DNA of 64,000 nucleotides from Lutraria lutraria (lineage: Eukaryota; Mollusca; Bivalvia; Venerida; Mactridae): positions 10,397,093 through 10,461,092 of the forward strand of contig OZ026843.1 of NCBI GenBank assembly GCA_964023205.1. Reading direction: 5' to 3'. Position numbers and translations under genes: made by a program. Of this stretch, positions 7,211-58,265 are shown piece after piece. How positions within the stretch are numbered: position 1 is the stretch's first letter; every line of letters begins with the position of its first letter. The notes under the pieces were generated by a model. That model had not been told where the DNA came from. It saw only the letters and a list, made by a program, of their open reading frames with translations, and searched no databases.

Positions 7211-7560
7211 GTGACGGTTGCATTTCTGGAATCTGTTTTGATGTTCATAACTTTGGAATTAGTTTGGTGTTGTATTTTGCCATATTTTGTGTTCATAACT
7301 ACTGCATTTTGGGATATTGGTTTTTATCACTGTTGCATCTTGGGATATTTTTTCTCATCACTGTTGCATTTTGGGATATTTTTTCTCATGACTGTTGCGT
7401 CTTGGGATATTGATTTTTATCACTGTGGCGTCTTGAGATATTTTTTTCATAACTGTTGCATCTTGGGATATTATTTTTCATAACTGTTGCATCTTGGGAT
7501 ATTTTTTTTCATAACTGCATGTTGCATCTTGGGATATTTTGCTATTTTGACAGTTGCTTT
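7211..7560 (+). repeat. ~32-bp tandem repeat, about 10 copies
   Basis: Units resemble TGTTGCATCTTGGGATATTT followed by TTTTCTCATCAC. Copies are diverged at the left and closer at the right. Two overlapping short open frames here (79 and 90 codons) exist only because of the repeat and are not counted as genes. Confidence 0.9.
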
Positions 7561-11066: not shown

Positions 11067-12659
11067 TTTATCACAGTACACCCGTGAGAGGAAGTGAAGC
11101 ATACTGCATCATGGATAAATGGATTATTACAGTGACTCAACCTTTAAAAAAACAAAACAAATTCGCTTAGCTCTGTCGTTCATTATGGCTTTACTGCACA
11201 GTTGATTTAATTTTCCTTTCATTGCCTTAAAGACATGTAAGATTAGATTCTCCAAACATGAAGTCATTAATTCTCTCTTCATTACCTTATACGCTAATAA
11301 TTCCTTATATGGTAAAATCGTTAAGTTTTTCAGCTGATGTTTAAAGGAATACATTCACGGCATGTTCTATCTGGTGCTGTTCTGTACCTTTAGGACGTAC
11401 TCTTGATTAATTTTTATGATGAATGTTTAACAATTTCAATTAAAACTTAGTGGCAAATTGTTGTCAGAATGCCATGATTAAATGATGACAGACACAGTCT
11501 TGGCTGGAATATCTTAAGACAGCTGTGGTGCTGCATCTGTTATTATGTAATAACGAACATCATGTGGTCCCAAACATGAGGATAGCTGGTTCCAAAATTT
11601 ACAAAGAATCTTAGTTTATTGTATCTTACTTTTTGTTTGGAAGTTAATCTGTTAGTGTTTAACCTTGTTATTCATATACATAAAAAAGAGTGAAGTTAAG
11701 TAATCATTTGATTGATATCTTAAACATTTGAGGGAAATCAATCCTAAGCATTTAAGGGAAACCTCAAGCCATTTGAGGGAAATCACTAGCCATTGGGGGA
11801 AATCTCAAGCTACTGAGGGAAATCTCAAATAACCGAGGGAAAATCTAAAACATTTGAGGGACATCTCAAACAGGGAAATCTCAAAGGTTTTTTTGTATAT
11901 ATGTAAATATAACCTTGATCTTTTTTAATATAATTATGAATTAGTAGTTGTTATTAATAGCCAAAATTTGTTATGCAATCTATTTTATAGAAAAAGATAG
12001 TAATGAAAAGTAAGAAAATAAGTCATTTATTAACAATAAGAGCTGCATCAAATGTGTGTATTAATTATAAACTATTATGTTGCTGAGTGGTGATTTGTCT
12101 GTCATATTTTCACTATTTTATTCTGTAATGAAGATGTTACAAGCTCATTTAATAGTAATAGAAGAAGTATTACCATGGTAATGTAATGAACAAGTAATGA
12201 TGACATAATTTCAGCTTTCAGAAATCATTGCAACAATAGTAACTTGGTATGATCATATTATAATTGTCAATTGTGGCAGTTTTCTGCATCGAGGGAAAAA
12301 TGAATTAAGTTCCGATGATCTTGTTACAATTATGCTCCTTCTGATATTGCTGAGTGCTCATTTATGATTACACTTGACAGCTAGCTTCAAACGATGAAGT
12401 ATTAACGCGAGTTTTGTCTCGTTAGCTTGTTGCTCTATTTGACGCTACGTCTCTGGGAACTACATCATGTGTGAGTCTTTGGGATGGAAGAATATTTTCC
12501 CGTATTTTTTTAGGAATTTTGTTATTCAAGAGTCCACAGAGGCAGTCACAGTCCTGGAAAATGTTTAGAAAATATGATTTTTGTGAAAATAGAGAAAGGT
12601 CTTGTTATGCATGTTTGATCACTTAATATTTTGTTGTCATCAGAAGATGTCAAACAGGT
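11067..12659. other. Non-coding apart from the 22-bp array
   Basis: Only the degenerate repeat at 11722-11890 is recognised. Confidence 0.5.
11722..11890. repeat. Degenerate ~22-bp tandem repeat
   Basis: About eight units built around CATTTGAGGGAAATCTCAA, with drift in both length and sequence. Confidence 0.85.
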
Positions 12660-15812: not shown

Positions 15813-16046
15813 ACCCGACTCTGTGGTCGAGTGGTTAAGGTCGCTACTTCATATCACTGTAATCTCTCACTAAGTTTGAGCCCCGCTACCGACCATGTCT
15901 CTTTATGTGAGAAAGTAGACAGTTGCTTATGGAGGATGGGAGTCTAGTACTGGTTCTTCCCAGGATCAATGATTAGGTGAACTGTCCATCTCATATGACT
16001 CTGACTGTTGATAAGGGGGATAAAACCCGATATAAACAGTCTTTGA
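15813..16046 (+). mobile_element. tRNA-derived SINE
   Basis: The head CTCTGTGGTCGAGTGGTTAA is a convincing A-box region and AGTTTGAGCCCC is B-box-like. The central domain reads GTACTGGTTCTTCCCAGGAT then GATTAGGTGAACTGTCCATC; the tail CTCTGACTGTTGATAAGGGG resembles 9186-9215. The anticodon arm does not give a clean tRNA fold. Confidence 0.78.
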
Positions 16047-16061
16047 ATTAATTTTTTGTGA

Positions 16062-16168
16062 CAGGTTGCTCGACTATATGCTCTATGAAGGAAACTCCTT
16101 AAAACTAGGTTGCCCTCCAAACGACTTAAAGAAGAAAAAGAATCCTTTCGGGCAGGGAGCAACCCACT
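16062..16168. repeat. Inverted repeat AGGTTGCTC...GAGCAACCC
   Basis: AGGTTGCTCGAC at about 16062 and GGGAGCAACCCAC at about 16155 are opposed across ~90 bp, next to the SINE tail. They might be ends of a small element. Confidence 0.4.
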
Positions 16169-16484
16169 AATTTGAAGACTGTATAAACAAACAAATATTA
16201 TAAAAAGTAATATTTTTTCATGACGAAAATAACCTTTCTCCAAATGCAGTAACGGTAGTTCATGAATTAAACATGGCGTTCGATCCTCATATTTAAGTTG
16301 AACTTGTTCATATCTAACTTTACCTTCCTCTTGTAAAAGTAACATTGGTTTATAGACTTCAAGAATGTCCTCTAAGTGCTGTAGAACTTATCCAGTACCT
16401 CAGGTATAATTAAACTGAAATTGCACTGCAGGTATTGGCAACAGTACGACTGGGCTACTGATCTGAGGATTTACAAGTAGCCTG

Positions 16485-28136: not shown

Positions 28137-28463
28137 GCTTTTAATCATTATAAGTATAAAATGTTCTTTCACTTTTAAATCATTATAAATATTAAATGTT
28201 ATTTCACTCATGAATTGTTATAATTATATCATGTTATTTCAATTTTGAATCATTTTAAGTATAAAATTTTATTTCACTTTTAAATCATTTTAAGTATAAA
28301 ATTTTATTTAACTTTTTGAATCATTATAAGTATAAAATCTTATTTCACTCTTTAAATCATTTTAAGTATACAATTTTATTTCACTTTTTAAATCATTAAA
28401 GATAAATAAAATATTATTTCACTTTTTAATCATTATAAATATAATTTCACATTTAAATCATAA
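28137..28463. repeat. ~37-bp AT-rich tandem repeat, about 9 copies
   Basis: Units resemble TTTAAATCATTATAAGTATA followed by AAATGTTATTTCACTT. Copies carry single-base changes and small length changes. The array abuts a SINE on its right. Confidence 0.92.
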
Positions 28464-35091: not shown

Positions 35092-35328
35092 TATAACTAT
35101 AATGCAACTAAATGTATCAGAATGGTTATGAAATTTTCCAAATAATTGCTGTTAATGTAAATATTTGTATCTAACCATGATATAAAAGAACTTTGAAGAT
35201 ATGATAGATTTATCTCTCCATTGATAGGATTCCAACTCTGGACCGTTTAGATAATATTGGGGGTCTTAAAATAATGATGTCACATGTAAGTCACAATACT
35301 TCAATGTTAATCCTTGTCTTTCTGAATA

Positions 35329-35449
35329 CAGGGGTTGTGATTTTTTCGCTGATCGGCGGATTTCCTCATTTTTGTTCATCTCTGGACCAATTGGTGGTCC
35401 GTAGGTAAATGAAATTGATTTTCCTCTTATCCCACTTATCACACCCCTG
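35329..35449. mobile_element. CAGGGG-ended short element, 121 bp
   Basis: It begins CAGGGGTTGTGA and ends TCACACCCCTG, an imperfect inversion. I see no matching flanking duplication, so the boundaries or the call may be wrong. Two short minus-strand frames here are by-products. Confidence 0.45.
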
Positions 35450-38136
35450 ACTGCATGCACAGTTGTCTGTAAGTTCTCTAATACCCAACAAACTTCCCCT
35501 GAGTGTTCTCTGCCCCAAATGAGTCTGATCTGACTTTGGTATTGAGTCTTTCAAATTTTAACTCTGTTATTCATCTTCAGAGACATATAAATTCATGCTC
35601 TCAATTTTACAAGACTTATATCCTAGTTTTGACAAATAAATTTAGGCGAGTGTTTGACAAATCTGAGTTGATGTGTCTCATTTCTTCCTGTATGTATTAA
35701 AATGATCATTCTTACTCAAAGTTGAAGAAACTTGTCTTGTTGGCTTATATTTGCTTAATGCCGTGGATTTGTGAATTTAGAATTGAACTTGTATTCTGAC
35801 ATAGAATAAGTATTCCATCTTGTGTATACTTTCTGTGCTTTTTCTTTTCTTTGTGGTAGATTGACGTCTTTTTCGTGGCATTTTCTCTTCAAGATATATG
35901 TTCGGTATGTCTGATTGATAAAACATGAGTTTTGTATGAAAATGCTCAGGGTATTCCATCTAGCTCAGAGTTATGAATTAAATATTGATGGTTTTAGTTT
36001 GGCTCCAAAAGTCTTTATGAAAAAAATATAAGACTTTAGTGCTCTATCATATCAGGGTCTAGTATAAGCCCAGAATAAAACCATTAATGTTTGCCCTTAA
36101 AGTGACTAACACGGAAAAAAAGTCCACGACCCAAAACGAATATTTTACATATCTTAGGTCTAGAATGTATTTTTTTTCTCATGATATGCTGTAGACCTAC
36201 GTCTTTCTAAGCACTTAATTATTTCATGGTGTTGATCGAATGATTCTCTACCTACCTTCACATAATAAAAACAAAATATTACCTTGGACCAAAAATGACT
36301 AAAATTGTTATCTTATAACTTATTAATGACAATCTTTAACTGCATTGTATGTGGTCCCCGGCTTCAGATTAAAATCAAGTCCTTTAATTCTGGGAAATGT
36401 TCTTGGTAGCTCCTTCTTCACAATAATGACAACCGTTAATGTATTAATAATAGCTAACCATAGTAACTGTCATGTTTTGACAGATGTTACACTATTTTAC
36501 AATTTCTTGACAACTTCACTGGAGTTAATACCAGGCTATCAACTTTCCCACAGGGGCTAGTGTTTGACTGGTTCCATGTCCCCTAATTAAGTTTTTTTCC
36601 TCCTTCAACAGACCTTGATGTTTTATAGCTAGAAATGAAGCTATGGTGTAAGCCTTTCTTGAATAGATATTTGCCATAAAACACATGAAAAACTTATTTC
36701 TTGCTTATTCTGTTAGATTTCTCTGAGACTTCTCACAGACCCCCTATGTATGTTTCTATTAGTATAAAATGGAATAAAACTGTGTGGTATAAAATATAAT
36801 AGTAATAGAAATAGTGAATGTATAAATTGATAACACCTGCTTTACAAAGTTCCTTGTGGAAGATACAGAAGTTATGAAATTACTCTTTATTTTATTATAC
36901 TTATATAGCAAGTGGCATAATTATGAGTTAATATAATAATGTTTAGTTCATAAACTAGGAGTTTGCTCTTAACTCAAACACAGTGTGTATCATTAGATTT
37001 AAAACAAAAAAAGTGTTTCATTTATTCTGTTCTAACTTAATCTACAATTTATCATCTGTCTTATTCTCTTGCTAATTGTTTCACTCCATTTTTCTGATTT
37101 TCTGCTACCACATGTCACTTGCTCACTTTCTTCCCATGTTGTATTTCCCTGTTATTGGATATCATACTTACCATTGATTACCATGTCCAGGCCTTTGTAT
37201 GCCATTATTAAAGCAGAAATTCAGCTCCAATCCCCTAATGAAAAAGTTGATATTTAATCTACTTTTTCATCCTAAAATTCCTTAGTCAGGTATTTACTTT
37301 TTAATTTACAAAAAATAAAGCCAATAACAACTGCGTATATTGGGTATAGCAAAAAAAAATGTTTTCCTTACTTTCATTTGAATATACATTGTCATACTCT
37401 CCTTAAGATATTAACCATGTCATAATATCCCTAACTATCCACTCAGGTGACCATAAAATGCTGTCCCTTAAATTACTCTCCAGTAATTACCATGACATAC
37501 TTTCACTTAATCACCCTTTCTACTATTGACTCCTCATACTCTCTGAGCTTCTGTGAGGGTACACTCAGCTAATGTGAATATAATGCACATTGTCAGAATA
37601 ATTGAACTTAACTTGTTCAAGCATGCAGAGATATATACATTATTATACAACTATTACAAAAATATCTGTAATATTTTCTTACTGTAGACAACCTGTGACT
37701 ACATACAGGTTAATTAGTTAGTAATTAGGTCTGGTATAGGATATAACATCAGGAAGGTGAGGATTTAGATAATATATCAGGGTCATTATAGTCACCATCA
37801 CACCATTCATTGTTAGGTAACATTGCGTGTACTGTTAGGTAATATTTTATGTAATACTCCTAATTATGCAGCTTTTATAGCTTGGCATTATATTCAGTGT
37901 ACCACTTACAGTGCTTTGATTCCACTTCTGATATTTTCTTACCCTCAGGTTTGGAGAGAGTAACATCATTATTCGTATTGACATTTTGATTTGATTGTTT
38001 CAAATATTACAATGAGAGTTCTACATAATAATCATGTTTCAGTGCAGACATACATGGAACATGCAAAAGTGATCACTAATTATTTATTAATTAGATTAGA
38101 AACTTATTTGGACTTGGAAATGTCAAATGTTATTAA
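35450..38136. other. AT-rich, nothing assigned
   Basis: Several 60-71 codon frames without domain character; no repeat recognised. Confidence 0.5.
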
Positions 38137-38941: not shown

Positions 38942-39948
38942 GTAAGATACTTGAAAATTTATGCCTCTGTTTGATGCCAAATCAACTTTATGTGGTCTTT
39001 TAATGTACCTAATCCTTCCAGATAGCTTTATTGACTTAGATAATTTTATTACTGTGTTGTTACGATTACAGACCTATAATATACAGTATACAATCCTGTA
39101 CGTACTCAATATCTTCTCATTGAAAAGACAGCTTAACCTTTGAATGTAATCATGAAAATATGGTTGTAGGTGAATTTGATTGAAATGGCATTCTGGGTAG
39201 ATTGCTTTATCCGAAAGTACCATAATAGCATTTTGCCCACTTCCTTATTGTAAATTCTTGACATTTTGCCTCTGTTATTATTAACTGCAGCTATTTTAGA
39301 TGTTTTCATTTGTCCGAAACTCTGACTCACTGCATGAATGTCGAAATTGCTGAGTAAATTATTTCAGCGCACCCTGAAGTCAGAAACATTGACTCAACTT
39401 TACGTGTGGTTTAGTGCATGCTTACAAAGCACATCTTTGGTTTTTGGTTGCATTTCTTACAAAAATATGAACTGCTTGATTACATGCTGTTGTTTTAAAA
39501 TACATTAGTACATACAATGTATAAATGGCTGAACTTATCAGCTCAGTCTGGTAAAAGCAGCTGAAAAATAAGTTAATCTCAGCTTACAGATGTTATAAAC
39601 ATCTTACTTAGTTTAAATGTCTGCACAATTCTGACTTGATTGTTTTCAGTGATGGTATTTCTTTGCCTCAGATGAAACCAGAAATAGTAACGACCCCTTT
39701 TTTTACCAGAAACCCGATTCAGAGCCTGTTGTCCTTTGTTTATAGTAGTAAAGGGCTTAATATTACAATGGTGGTCTAATAATATGTCATCCAGAGTACT
39801 GAATCTATCAATACCTTTATGATAATTCTAATTGTTTGGGTTTAAACAATAGTCTGTTTCTTTTTTTGGCTTCATTCTGAGCTGTATAACAAAACTGATT
39901 CAGATAATTTATAAGTACTATAGAAATAAACCCTTTAGATCAACATAC
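38942..39948. other. Between exon-like segment 2 and the minisatellite
   Basis: No feature recognised; a 60-codon plus frame and a 65-codon minus frame look fortuitous. Confidence 0.5.
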
Positions 39949-40536
39949 CAATCATCTGAGATTACCAAACCTTCCAATCATCGGGGATAACCAAACCTTC
40001 CAATCATCGGGGATAACCAAACCTTCCAATCATCGGGGGTTACTTAACCTTCCAATCATCGGGGGTTACTTAACCTTCCAATCATCGGGGATAACCAAAC
40101 CTTCCAATCATCGGGGATAACCAAACCTTCCAATCATTGGGGATAACCAAACCTTCCAATCATCGAGGGTAACCAAACCTTCCAATCATCTTGGATAACC
40201 AAACCTTCCAATCATTGGGGATAACCAAACCTTCCAATCATCTGAGATTACCAAACCTTCCAATCATTGGGGATAACCAAACCTTCCAATCATCTTGGAT
40301 AACCAAACCTTCCAATCATCGGGGATAACCAAACCTTCCAATCATCTGAGATTACCAAACCTTCCAATCATCGGGGATTACCAAACCTTCCAATCATCGG
40401 GGATAACCAAACCTTCCAATCATCGGGGATAACCAAACCTTCCAATCATCTGAGATTACCAAACCTTCCAATCATTGGGGATAACCAAACCTTCCAATCA
40501 TCTTGGATAACCAAACCTTCCAATCATCGGGGATAA

Positions 40537-41082
40537 CCAAACCTTCCAATCATCTTGGATAACCAAACCTTCCAATCATCTTGGATAACCAAACCTTCCA
40601 ATCATCTGAGATTACCAAACCTTCCAATCATCGGGGGTAACCAAACCTTCCAATCATCTTGGATAACCAAACCTTCCAATCATCTTGGATAACCAAACCT
40701 TCCAATCATCTTGGATAACCAAACCTTCCAATCATTGGGGATAACCAAACCTTCCAATCATCTTGGATAACCAAACCTTCCAATCATCTTGGATAACCAA
40801 ACCTTCCAATCATTGGGGATAACCAAACCTTCCAATCATCGGGGATAACCAAACCTTCCAATCATCTTGGATAACCAAACCTTCCAATCATTGGGGATTA
40901 CCAAACCTTCCAATCATCTTGGATAACCAAACCTTCCAATCATTGGGGATAACCAAACCTTCCAATCATCTTGGATAACCAAACCTTCCAATCATTGGGG
41001 ATAACCAAACCTTCCAATCATTGGGGATAACCAAACCTTCCAATCATTGGGGATAACCAAACCTTCCAATCATTGGGGATAA
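40537..41082. repeat. Higher-order block, copy 1 (21 monomers)
   Basis: With monomers coded by their variable half, the block reads B B D G B B B C B B C A B F B C B C C C C (A = CGGGGATAA, B = CTTGGATAA, C = TTGGGGATAA, D = CTGAGATTA, F = TTGGGGATTA, G = CGGGGGTAA). The next 546 bp repeat the same order. The CTGAG variant at 40605 recurs at 41151, an offset of 546 = 21 x 26. Confidence 0.93.
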
Positions 41083-41628
41083 CCAAACCTTCCAATCATC
41101 TTGGATAACCAAACCTTCCAATCATCTTGGATAACCAAACCTTCCAATCATCTGAGATTACCAAACCTTCCAATCATCGGGGGTAACCAAACCTTCCAAT
41201 CATCTTGGATAACCAAACCTTCCAATCATCTTGGATAACCAAACCTTCCAATCATCTTGGATAACCAAACCTTCCAATCATTGGGGATAACCAAACCTTC
41301 CAATCATCTTGGATAACCAAACCTTCCAATCATCTTGGATAACCAAACCTTCCAATCATTGGGGATAACCAAACCTTCCAATCATCGGGGATAACCAAAC
41401 CTTCCAATCATCTTGGATAACCAAACCTTCCAATCATTGGGGATTACCAAACCTTCCAATCATCTTGGATAACCAAACCTTCCAATCATTGGGGATAACC
41501 AAACCTTCCAATCATCTTGGATAACCAAACCTTCCAATCATTGGGGATAACCAAACCTTCCAATCATTGGGGATAACCAAACCTTCCAATCATTGGGGAT
41601 AACCAAACCTTCCAATCATTGGGGATAA
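41083..41628. repeat. Higher-order block, copy 2 (21 monomers)
   Basis: This is a head-to-tail copy of the preceding 546 bp. By eye I found no base difference, including the rare CGGGGGTAA and TTGGGGATTA monomers. It points to a recent segmental duplication inside the array by unequal exchange or conversion, or to an assembly duplication. Confidence 0.93.
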
Positions 41629-43308
41629 CCAAACCTTCCAATCATCGGGGATAACCAAACCTTCCAATCATCGGGGATAACCAAACCTTTCAATCATCGG
41701 GGATTACCAAACCTTCCAATCATCTTGGATAACCAAACCTTCCAATCATTGGGGATAACCAAACCTTCCAATCATCTTGGATAACCAAACCTTCCAATCA
41801 TCTTGGATAACCAAACCTTCCAATCATCTTGGATAACCAAACCTTCCAATCATCTTGGATAACCAAACCTTCCAATCATCTTGGATAACCAAACCTTCCA
41901 ATCATTGGGGATTACCAAACCTTCCAATCATTGGGGATTACCAAACCTTCCAATCATCGGGGATAACCAAACCTTCCAATCATCTGGGATAACCAAACCT
42001 TCCAATCATCTTGGATAACCAAACCTTCCAATCATCTTGGATAACCAAACCTTCCAATCATCTTGGATAACCAAACCTTCCAATCATTGGGGATAACCAA
42101 ACCTTCCAATCATCGGGGATAACCAAACCTTCCAATCATCGGGGATAACCAAACCTTCCAATCATCTTGGATAACCAAACCTTCCAATCATCTTGGATAA
42201 CCAAACCTTCCAATCATCTTGGATAACCAAACCTTCCAATCATCTTGGATAACCAAACCTTCCAATCATTGGGGATAACCAAACCTTCCAATCATCGGGG
42301 ATAACCAAACCTTCCAATCATCGGGGATAACCAAACCTTCCAATCATCGGGGATAACCAAACCTTCCAATCATCTGGGATAACCAAACCTTCCAATCATC
42401 GGGGATAACCAAACCTTCCAATCATCTTGGATAACCAAACCTTCCAATCATCTTGGATAACCAAACCTTCCAATCATCGGGGATAACCAAACCTTCCAAT
42501 CATCTTGGATAACCAAACCTTCCAATCATCTTGGATAACCAAACCTTCCAATCATTGGGGATAACCAAACCTTCCAATCATCGGGGATAACCAAACCTTC
42601 CAATCATCGGGGATAACCAAACCTTCCAATCATCGGGGATAACCAAACCTTCCAATCATCGGGGATAACCAAACCTTCCAATCATCTTGGATAACCAAAC
42701 CTTCCAATCATCTGGGATAACCAAACCTTCCAATCATCTGGGATAACCAAACCTTCCAATCATCGAGGATAACCAAACCTTCCAATCATCTGGGATAACC
42801 AAACCTTCCAATCATTGGGGATTACCAAACCTTCCAATCATCGAGGATAACCAAACCTTCCAATCATCGGGGATAACCAAACCTTCCAATCATCTTGGAT
42901 AACCAAACCTTCCAATCATCTGGGATAACCAAACCTTCCAATCATTGGGGATAACCAAACCTTCCAATCATCTGGGATAACCAAACCTTCCAATCATTGG
43001 GGATAACCAAACCTTCCAATCATTGGGGATAACCAAACCTTCCAATCATCGAGGATAACCAAACCTTCCAATCATCGGGGATAACCAAACGTTCCAATCA
43101 TCTTGGATAACCAAACCTTCCAATCATCGGGGATAACCAAACCTTCCAATCATTGGGGATTACCAAACCTTCCAATCATCTGAGATTACCAAACCTTCCA
43201 ATCATCGGGGATAACCAAACCTTCCAATCATCTTGGATAACCAAACCTTCCAATCATTGGGGATTACCAAACCTTCCAATCATTGGGGATTACCAAACCT
43301 TCCAATCA

Positions 43309-44138
43309 GATAAATCTTGTATCTGGGGGTGAATATTTTACAAGGTTTTCTGAAGGAAGTTATTGTTTCTTTATTCTGGATATAACACAAACAGGATTAA
43401 CATTAAGAACCATTCCTTAAGATCTCTACTTTCTTTGAGATCTGTATTTACACTTTTACAAAAGCCAAATTATATCGTAAGTCAAAATTCTGAAGAATTA
43501 CGATTTGTCTGAAGTCTCATATGAGATTATTATTTTTGTGTGTTTGTGTAACATGAAACAATAAGAAAAACAGTACATCTTTAATGTATTTAATATATTT
43601 CACTGTTACGTAAAAGCTCTCATTAATGAATACTGTTTTTTCTCATCTGTATAATGTTTTGTTGTAATTAGTTCCTGTAATGCTTGCATCTTGTTTGTTA
43701 GATCATTAAAATGGACCTTTAATGAACGTAAGTCATTCTGGCGCAATAGAATAATGTAATATGGGAGTGTGCATCATATTATACCAGAAGGCGCACAATA
43801 CCAATAAACACAATCAAAATGGTGGTATTATCAGGAGCTGATATCAAATTTGTTTAATGCACTTTTTGTGTTTTCTTTCTTTCATGTGTTATTATTTATC
43901 TTACAGTAGAATAAACAGATAAAAACAGCATAATTATTAAGACTTTCTTTTAGAATTTACGGGTTGTGATTGTAAACTTCTGTTTCATATCTGAGGTGCA
44001 CCGGAAACTTTCTGAAATTCTGTGTTTTTGAAATAATATTATGCGACACAGCTGTTGGTCTTAATTGTAATTTTCTGTTCATGATGAATTATACAGTTTA
44101 AATTCATTATTATAATATCCATGTAGTCTATGTCACTA
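43309..44138. other. Right flank of the minisatellite
   Basis: AT-rich unique-looking sequence; nothing assigned. Confidence 0.5.
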
Positions 44139-44302
44139 GGGTTTTACACTGCACCAACATTTGGTGACTTTTCTGCTTTACTGGTAGTGGATGACGGACC
44201 AGGTGTATCCTGGGTAGATTTACCGCCGACCTTCCGTAAGCTAGCCGGACGACTTCCTCTAACGTGAGATTTGGTACCTGGTGAGATTTGAACTCGTAGA
44301 AT
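44139..44302 (-). mobile_element. SINE-like repeat, minus strand, another family
   Basis: On the minus strand a B-box-like GAGTTCAAATCTCACC is followed by AGGAAGTCGTCCGGCTAGCT, TACGGAAGGTCGGCGGTAAA, then CCCAGGATACACCTGGTCC and GTCACCAAATGTTGGTGCAG. GC content is well above its flanks. The tRNA head is incomplete. Confidence 0.55.
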
Positions 44303-45084
44303 TTGTCGTCTGCTGCGTAAAAATATCTATGTCAAGAATTTTAAAAAATTAGTTAAAACTCTGTAAAACGTGAGAGATAGTGAATAACTATGTTGTAGGA
44401 GCAACTTCATGTTCTATTTTCAACTCTGTGTCGACCATTACATGAATTTATGACCTGCAATTCAAGCATGTTTTAATAATACTAGTTCACTAAATACAAA
44501 TGTAGCTGTAGTAAAAAATATTGTTTTTGAATCAGGCCTGCGACAGATATTTTTGTTGTGGCATATTGAACAATCTTAGTCCTCAATCTTCCTATATTCA
44601 GTATTTTTTCTGTGATGTAAGAGGCAGCTTAGAGATTGAAGCTTACTCATGATCACCAAAAACACGGAAAACTACTTGAGTAAAAAATATGTCTGGGTAC
44701 ATATTACGGTGAACATTATAACTACTCGCTGAAGGCTTACCATATCTGCATGCTACATTAAACGTTAGATTTCCAGTTTTTCTTTGGTGTCGAAATCTGT
44801 AAACTCAATCATCATTGCTAAGTTATGACAGTTTTTTCTCATTATACAATATGACTGATTGTTTCTTAGATTGTAAGGCTGTCTTTACTACATTTTGCAA
44901 TACATGAATTCTAAGTATTGACAATTTGTTACATTTTGTTTCATTGTTTCCCGCTTCATGTCAGATTTACTGACACCATTTCATGGGTGATTAGTTGTTT
45001 TTGTCATGGAAGTTTGTCAGTTATATTCTTTTATTATCATTGTACTATATTGTTGTTGGCACTGGAAAATAAAATCATAATTTA

Positions 45085-54626: not shown

Positions 54627-54883
54627 ATTGAAGTAAACCTTACTGCCATTTATGTGTAATTAAAGTAAACCGTGTTGCCATGTATGTGTAATTAAAGTAA
54701 ACTGTGTTGCCATTAATGTGTAATTAAAGTATACCTTGTTGCCATTTATGTGTAATTGAAGTAAACTGTGTTGCCATTTATATGTAATTAAAGTAAACCA
54801 TGTTGCCATTTATGTGTAATTGAATTAAATTGTGTTGCAATTTATGTGTAATTAAAGTAAACTGTGTTGCCATTTATGTGTGT
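54627..54883. repeat. 32-bp tandem repeat, 8 copies
   Basis: The unit is ATTAAAGTAAACTGTGTTGC followed by CATTTATGTGTA. Eight units fill the interval at a constant 32-bp period with only substitutions (for example CATTAATG, AATTTATG). Confidence 0.95.
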
Positions 54884-57819: not shown

Positions 57820-58265
57820 ACTTGATTTTATGTCAGAATACATGAAAAATAATTGCTTTCAATTTGTGTTAGAATTTATTTACTTGTTTATTTCAGAGTT
57901 CCAAACTTTATGTCAGAAATTATGTCTAAATCTATGTCAAATTCCTAAACTAAAGGAATTGGTAACAAGTATGTCAGATTTCTGGAATTATGTCAGATTT
58001 CTAGGGTCATGTCAGATTTTTTGAAGTTAAGTTATGTCAGATTTCTGGAGTTTAGTCAGATTTCTAGAATTATGTCAGATTTCGAATTGTATCAGATTTC
58101 TGGAGTTATGTCAGATTTCTTGAAGTTATGTCAGATTAGAGTTAAGTCAGATTTCTGGAGTTTAGTCAGAATTCTAGAATTATGTTAGATTTCGAATTGT
58201 GTCAGATTTTTAGGGTTATGTCAGATTTCTAGAAGTTATGTCAGATTTCTGGATTTATTTCAGAA
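57820..58265. repeat. Irregular ~16-20 bp repeat, TATGTCAGATTTCT
   Basis: About sixteen occurrences of GTCAGATTTCT or close variants are followed by GGAATTA, AGAATTA, TGAAGTTA or similar, at irregular spacing. The left part is more decayed. A 78-codon frame over this stretch is a by-product of the repeat. Confidence 0.88.

What the first reader, a model, noticed from the sequence alone, without database searches (positions are those of the whole stretch)
39949..43308. 129 monomers of 26 bp with no net indel
The first and last variable halves are exactly 128 x 26 bp apart. Noncoding minisatellites usually gather indels, so strict phase suggests recent homogenisation or a phase-dependent constraint. 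26 bp is close to 2.5 helical turns, so successive monomers would face opposite sides of the DNA.
Basis: seen in the sequence. Interest (0 to 1): 0.75.

Follow-up and report, generated by a model that had tools for sequence, protein, structure and literature searches.

The report
Young, in-phase 26-bp clam minisatellite
A clam chromosome carries 129 back-to-back copies of a 26-letter DNA unit, all exactly the same length, which is best explained by recent copying of the units from one another and is an ordinary kind of repeat in a genome that seems rich in them.

Summary
At 39948-43308 there are 129 whole monomers, each exactly 26 bp, plus a 7-bp partial copy, with no indel at all. The COX1 on contig C71 of the same assembly is 97% identical to that of the clam Lutraria. 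The array is at one place in the 728.5-Mb assembly; its flanks matched only themselves. It records its own homogenisation: monomers 24-44 recur letter for letter as 45-65 (572 bp of exact identity at a lag of 546 bp), and like monomers cluster. Only 11 substitution alleles exist, so zero indel alleles is not significant against 16 other arrays of this genome (Fisher P = 0.13); against the three other long arrays alone, all of which have indels, it is borderline (0.07). The helical-face idea finds no support: the other arrays' periods show no preferred helical angle. Long minisatellites are common here (3 of 16 arbitrary 10-kb stretches hold one of about 6 kb or more). Human MSY1 is a published precedent for strict unit length (PMC2599865). 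Ordinary; low interest.

The parts
39948..43308 (+). minisatellite array, 129 whole monomers of 26 bp plus a 7-bp partial copy
40546..41091 (+). monomers 24-44, first copy of an exact 21-monomer (546-bp) block; exact identity with the sequence 546 bp downstream runs over 40529-41100 (572 bp)
41092..41637 (+). monomers 45-65, second copy of the 21-monomer block
40026..40077 (+). monomers 4-5, type H, with substitutions at columns 14, 16, 19 and 20 against the second commonest type; adjacent and near the left edge
43302..43308 (+). terminal partial copy CCAATCA, the same 7 bases that open the array at 39948-39954; possible trace of a founding short direct repeat
   Evidence: the reading as an origin is inference

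Best explanation
This is a single-locus, noncoding minisatellite of a clam of the genus Lutraria or very near it. A 26-bp stretch flanked by a 7-bp direct repeat was probably duplicated by slippage or misannealing (inferred). The array then grew and was homogenised by exchange between misaligned but in-register copies: unequal sister exchange, or gene conversion by strand invasion and synthesis (mechanism inferred; the products, an exact block duplication and clustered variants, are shown). Every such event adds, removes or swaps whole 26-bp units, so phase is kept without a constraint. The array looks young: only 11 substitution alleles are present among 129 monomers, so no indel allele need be expected. 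Shown: unit length, single locus, exact 21-monomer duplication, clustering, few alleles. Inferred: the molecular route, the age, and the absence of a function.
For: 129 of 129 monomers are 26 bp, in 13 types. Monomers 24-44 equal 45-65, 572 bp of identity at a lag of 546 bp; in 1000 shuffles of monomer order the longest repeated block was 9, in 2 shuffles. Neighbours are alike more often than in shuffled order, also with the second copy of the block left out (0.308 against 0.190, P = 0.0006, 5000 shuffles). Types F and G (10 monomers) lie only at positions 79-120 and H only at 4-5, as local amplification would give. All four combinations of letters occur for columns 9/16, 10/16 and 14/16, as conversion within a monomer or repeated mutation would give. 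Zero indel beside 11 substitution alleles is not significant against 16 other arrays (Fisher P = 0.13). Single locus: 127 of the 128 forward genome matches to the 17-base core (up to one mismatch) lie in the array.
Against: The other three long arrays (206-249 copies, partly cut by the ends of the stretches) all carry indels (19, 48 and 247 events), so this one is the cleanest of four; with those three alone P is 0.07 (Fisher) and 0.03 (binomial chance of no indel). Variable columns are not spread at random: the 8 columns with a minor letter seen at least twice lie within 12 of 26 columns (P = 0.005), six of them within 8 (P = 0.002); chosen after seeing the data and treating columns as independent. 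One assembly only, so the exact 546-bp duplication could in principle be an assembly error. Apart from the 21-monomer block no long block duplication stands out.
Confidence: 0.88

Rival explanations
1. Phase-dependent constraint: a protein or chromatin structure needs the units at 26-bp spacing on alternating faces of the helix, and selection removes monomers of other lengths.
For: All 129 monomers are 26 bp. Columns 17-26 and 1-8 are nearly invariant (1, 2, 2 and 1 departures at columns 1, 19, 20 and 24), the common variants lying in columns 9-16. By recall, CCAATCA resembles a CCAAT box.
Against: Zero indels is not significant given 11 substitution alleles. The periods of 16 other arrays show no helical preference. 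At 26/10.5 turns the angle drifts by about 17 degrees every two monomers (hand computation), so faces alternate only locally. A 26-bp array with a different unit and 13.1 copies (L056) also has no indel.
Confidence: 0.04
2. Hairpin-driven turnover: as proposed for human MSY1, single strands of the unit fold on themselves, and this drives exchange and purges units of other length. This is compatible with homogenisation and would be its motor.
For: Three copies in a row of the commonest type (A, 44 monomers) fold at -7.8 and, on the other strand, -9.1 kcal/mol (z -2.1 and -2.6; 3 and 2 of 200 shuffles as good). Types A, C and D (77 of 129) have the strongest threefold-copy folds of the 13 types. 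Of the six single-step neighbours of type B that occur, three rank 6, 11 and 14 among all 78 by energy. MSY1 never shows units other than 25 bp and is predicted to form a hairpin (PMC2599865).
Against: Single monomers of types A, B and C fold no better than usual for shuffles (z between -1.4 and +1.1, 5 sequences). Type B (27 monomers) hardly folds (-2.1), and energy does not correlate with abundance over the 13 types (Spearman -0.21, P = 0.49). The other three neighbours rank 27, 32 and 58.
Confidence: 0.06
3. Assembly artefact: copy number or the exact 546-bp duplication was created by the assembler.
For: 572 bp of exact identity in tandem is what a mis-joined overlap would also give.
Against: Without the second copy of the block, 108 in-phase monomers remain, still clustered. 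The array is 3.4 kb, short against usual long reads; the read type is not known here.
Confidence: 0.05
4. The array is the central repeat of a mobile element, as in the Helentron-type Cg_HINE elements of the oyster.
For: Known from Crassostrea gigas (PMC7492417, abstract).
Against: The left (39400-39960) and right (43296-43900) flanks match only themselves in the genome, while the same kind of search finds 39 other places for a dispersed repeat 0.8 kb away. The unit itself is at one locus.
Confidence: 0.02

Closest known systems
Human Y-chromosomal minisatellite MSY1 (DYF155S1), 25-bp unit, 48-118 units (PMC2599865: abstract, introduction and discussion seen)
   Same: Unit length, copy number, substitution variants of one unit, and no units of other length.
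   Different: MSY1 variants lie in blocks; here they are interspersed, with one exact 21-unit duplication. MSY1 is 75% A+T; this array is about 58% A+T and more GC-rich than its surroundings. MSY1 is Y-linked and haploid; linkage to sex is unknown here. The hairpin predicted for MSY1 is at most weak here.
Other minisatellites of the same genome (L040, L041, L051, L056)
   Same: Short-period arrays, up to hundreds of copies, substitution variants.
   Different: The three long ones carry indels and more substitution alleles (49, 31 and 35 against 11).
Satellite-like arrays in Helentron-type Cg_HINE elements of Crassostrea gigas (PMC7492417, abstract seen)
   Same: Dispersed tandem arrays of a bivalve.
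   Different: No repeated flanks found here.
SSUsat satellite DNA of Spisula subtruncata, Mactridae (PMC5537241, abstract seen)
   Same: Tandem repeat of a clam of the same family (placing Lutraria in Mactridae is recalled).
   Different: SSUsat is at least 1.3% of its genome; this unit is at one locus.

Membership tests
Minisatellite | Head-to-tail array of a unit of 9-100 bp (range as in PMC2599865) | tested here: met
   26 bp, 129 whole copies
Minisatellite | Internal map of variant repeats that differ by substitutions | tested here: met
   13 types, 10 variable columns
Minisatellite | Polymorphism of length and map between individuals | not testable with these tools
   no reads or second individual held
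Satellite DNA | Abundant, at many loci or in very long arrays | tested here: not met
   one locus of 3.4 kb
Helentron/HINE central repeat | Flanks repeated around other arrays in the genome | tested here: not met
   flanks matched only themselves; a dispersed repeat used as positive control had 39 other scored places
Coding repeat | Open reading frame through the array | tested here: not met
   no stop-to-stop frame of 150 aa or more in the window, and none of the 15 of at least 85 aa lies in the array

The most novel reading that the evidence does not exclude
The nearly constant 18-bp part and the strict 26-bp spacing are kept because each unit is a site for a DNA-binding protein, or a single-strand hairpin that couples units in register, so that units of other length are removed by conversion or selection and have not merely failed to arise yet.
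Probability: 0.05. Interest if true: 0.5.

Novelty: new member of a known kind. Interest (0 to 1): 0.15.

Why it matters
As a single finding it matters little: it adds a clean, young-looking minisatellite with a readable variant map to a clam genome that seems rich in long minisatellites. The more useful point is genome-wide: 26,485 of 160,000 sampled bases (16.6%) lie in tandem arrays of period 10-120 bp with at least 4 copies, so this clam could serve for studying how minisatellites grow and are homogenised.

Tried and rejected
Coding array: rejected, no open frame. Known structured RNA or tRNA in the window: none at the tools' thresholds. Dispersed repeat or mobile-element origin: rejected (positive control). 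Helical-face idea: no support. Hairpin idea: weak, for and against as told. Viral collection: 13 records with one exact match each to the 17-base core, none with a second; read as chance. Gene context: the longest open frame (15944-16387, minus strand, 147 aa) gave no match in Pfam, the PDB sequences or the protein collection; since considers only proteins of similar length, an exon of a long protein would be missed. Literature: eight searches; among the titles and abstract starts listed (at most 20 per search) I saw none on this array, and the library is open-access only. The idea that minisatellites start from short direct repeats (Haber and Louis, 1998) is recalled, not seen.

One search was a first, hand-picked set of 10 control arrays; one search replaces it with every TRF array (overlapping rows reduced to one) of period 15-60, at least 4 copies and at least 75% matches in the window and the 16 stretches, 16 controls in all. 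Both are reported. Arrays under the 75% threshold were left out; those I saw (window 11705-11872, L045:7178-7376, L046) have 7-13% indels by TRF. Some control arrays have only 4-9 copies, and consensus units are TRF's, so indel counts depend on alignment scores.

Full report
What is there. Tandem Repeats Finder reports one long array in the window, 39948-43308, period 26, 129.3 copies, 93% matches and 0% indels. Cut in register there are 129 whole monomers of 26 bp, then a 7-bp partial copy. The monomers fall into 13 types; the commonest are seen 44, 27 and 25 times. Ten columns vary. The eight columns where a minor letter occurs at least twice are 9, 10, 11, 12, 14, 16, 19 and 20; columns 1 and 24 vary once; the other 16 are invariant. 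The finding is confirmed, and more strongly than stated: there is no indel, rather than no net indel.

Where it is. The window is part of contig C12 (38.0 Mb) of an assembly of 728,538,669 bases in 71 contigs. The COX1 on contig C71, read with the invertebrate mitochondrial code, is 97% identical over all 447 residues to COX1 of Lutraria; the next four hits are Spisula (86%), Mactra (88%), an unnamed one (84%) and Raeta (82%), by recall all Mactridae where named. So the organism is Lutraria or close to it. No stop-to-stop frame of 150 aa or more lies in the window, and no Rfam family or tRNA was found. The 17-base constant core, with up to one mismatch, has 128 forward and 4 reverse matches in the genome, 127 of them in this array; the control pattern, read backwards, has 1. 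A 301-bp query from the array matched only the array, in 17 pieces. The left flank (39400-39960) and right flank (43296-43900) each matched only themselves. The same kind of search found 39 other places for a dispersed, SINE-like stretch at 44140-44340, so it can find dispersed repeats, although the tool warns that it skips very common words. The array is thus one locus without signs of mobile-element flanks.

How it got that way. Written as a string of monomer types, monomers 24-44 are identical to monomers 45-65. At base level the identity runs over 572 bp (40529-41100) at a lag of 546 bp, that is 21 units. In 1000 shuffles of the monomer order the longest repeated block was 9 monomers, in 2 shuffles. 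This is the mark of a recent in-register duplication of a block. Neighbouring monomers are alike more often than in shuffled order (0.312 against 0.203, P = 0.0008; with the second copy of the block left out 0.308 against 0.190, P = 0.0006; 5000 shuffles each). Rare types are local: F and G (10 monomers) at positions 79-120, H at 4-5. Beyond the 21-monomer block no further long duplication stands out: with it removed the longest repeat is 6 monomers, which 94 of 500 shuffles reach. The array begins and ends with the same seven bases, CCAATCA; as an origin by slippage between two short direct repeats this is inference.

Does the lack of indels need explaining? I took 16 stretches of 10 kb at round coordinates on 16 contigs as controls. 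Three of the 16 hold an array of about 6 kb or more (7,211, 5,985 and 10,000 bp, each cut by an end of its stretch), and 26,485 of 160,000 bases lie in arrays of period 10-120 and at least 4 copies. Sixteen other arrays of the window and the stretches passed fixed thresholds. Five of the 16 have no indel, all with 13.1 copies or fewer, among them a 26-bp array with a different unit (L056). The three with more than 200 copies have 48, 19 and 247 indel events. Counting alleles, not copies, since copies are related by descent: this array has 11 substitution and 0 indel alleles; the controls pooled have 274 and 74. Fisher P = 0.13; the chance of no indel among 11 alleles at the pooled ratio is 0.07. 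With only the three long arrays as controls these are 0.07 and 0.03. So the array is clean, the cleanest of four long ones, but few alleles of any kind exist (11 against 49, 31 and 35), and a young or recently homogenised array needs no further cause. The test treats alleles of different arrays as alike, which is a simplification.

Helical phase. 26 bp is 2.48 turns at 10.5 bp per turn. If opposite faces mattered in this genome at large one might expect other periods near half-integer turns. The 16 other periods (17 to 59 bp) show no preferred angle (Rayleigh R = 0.17, P about 0.6). This does not test a role of this locus alone.

What cuts the other way. The clustering of variable columns (8 columns within 12 of 26, P = 0.005; six within 8 of 26, P = 0.002) is not explained by youth alone unless several changes arose together; it was noticed after the fact and treats columns as independent. 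Three types making up 77 of 129 monomers have the strongest folds of the 13, through pairing of CCAA with TTGG, and three of the six neighbours of type B that occur rank in the best 14 of 78; but abundance does not follow folding energy over the 13 types (Spearman -0.21, P = 0.49), and the second commonest type hardly folds. These are the only hints of constraint that I found.

Compared with what is known. Human MSY1 is close: a 25-bp unit, 48-118 copies, substitution variants, units of other length never observed, and mutation for which its authors propose gene conversion by synthesis-dependent strand annealing between misaligned sister chromatids, with hairpins likely to play a part (PMC2599865; abstract, introduction and discussion seen). 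Strict unit length in a noncoding minisatellite is thus in print. This array resembles MSY1 in that respect; its variants are interspersed, not in blocks, and its polymorphism is untested. Verdict: a genuine, ordinary minisatellite.

Noticed in passing
L040:1-7211, L041:4015-9999, L051:1-10000 (G000 C1, C3, C11): Three of 16 arbitrary 10-kb stretches of this clam genome hold minisatellites of about 6 kb or more (29, 29 and 46 bp; over 200 copies each, cut by the stretch ends); 16.6% of the sampled bases are in arrays of period 10-120 bp. The genome looks rich in minisatellites.
   Followed up: partly
L051:1-10000: 46-bp array with 61% GC, filling the whole stretch, where 14 of the other 15 stretches have 32-36% GC.
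   Followed up: no
L046:2914-9705: A weak 20-bp array recurs eight times at spacings of 948-952 bp, so a tandem repeat of about 950 bp probably fills this part of the stretch.
   Followed up: no
44158-44299: Dispersed repeat, SINE-like by eye (tRNA-like box B, recalled); 39 other scored places at 71-85% identity in the genome, 70 candidates in all.
   Followed up: partly
35269-35550 (minus strand): Frame with a weak DDE_3 (DDE superfamily endonuclease) match, E 0.0036, below Pfam's cut-off; perhaps a transposase relic.
   Followed up: no
15944-16387 (minus strand): Longest open frame of the window (147 aa), exon-like by eye; no match in Pfam, PDB sequences or proteins of similar length.
   Followed up: partly
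1624-1747, 7268-7540, 28138-28444, 54627-54881, 57969-58248: Further short minisatellites in the window with other units of 31, 31, 35, 32 and 19 or 55-59 bp.
   Followed up: partly
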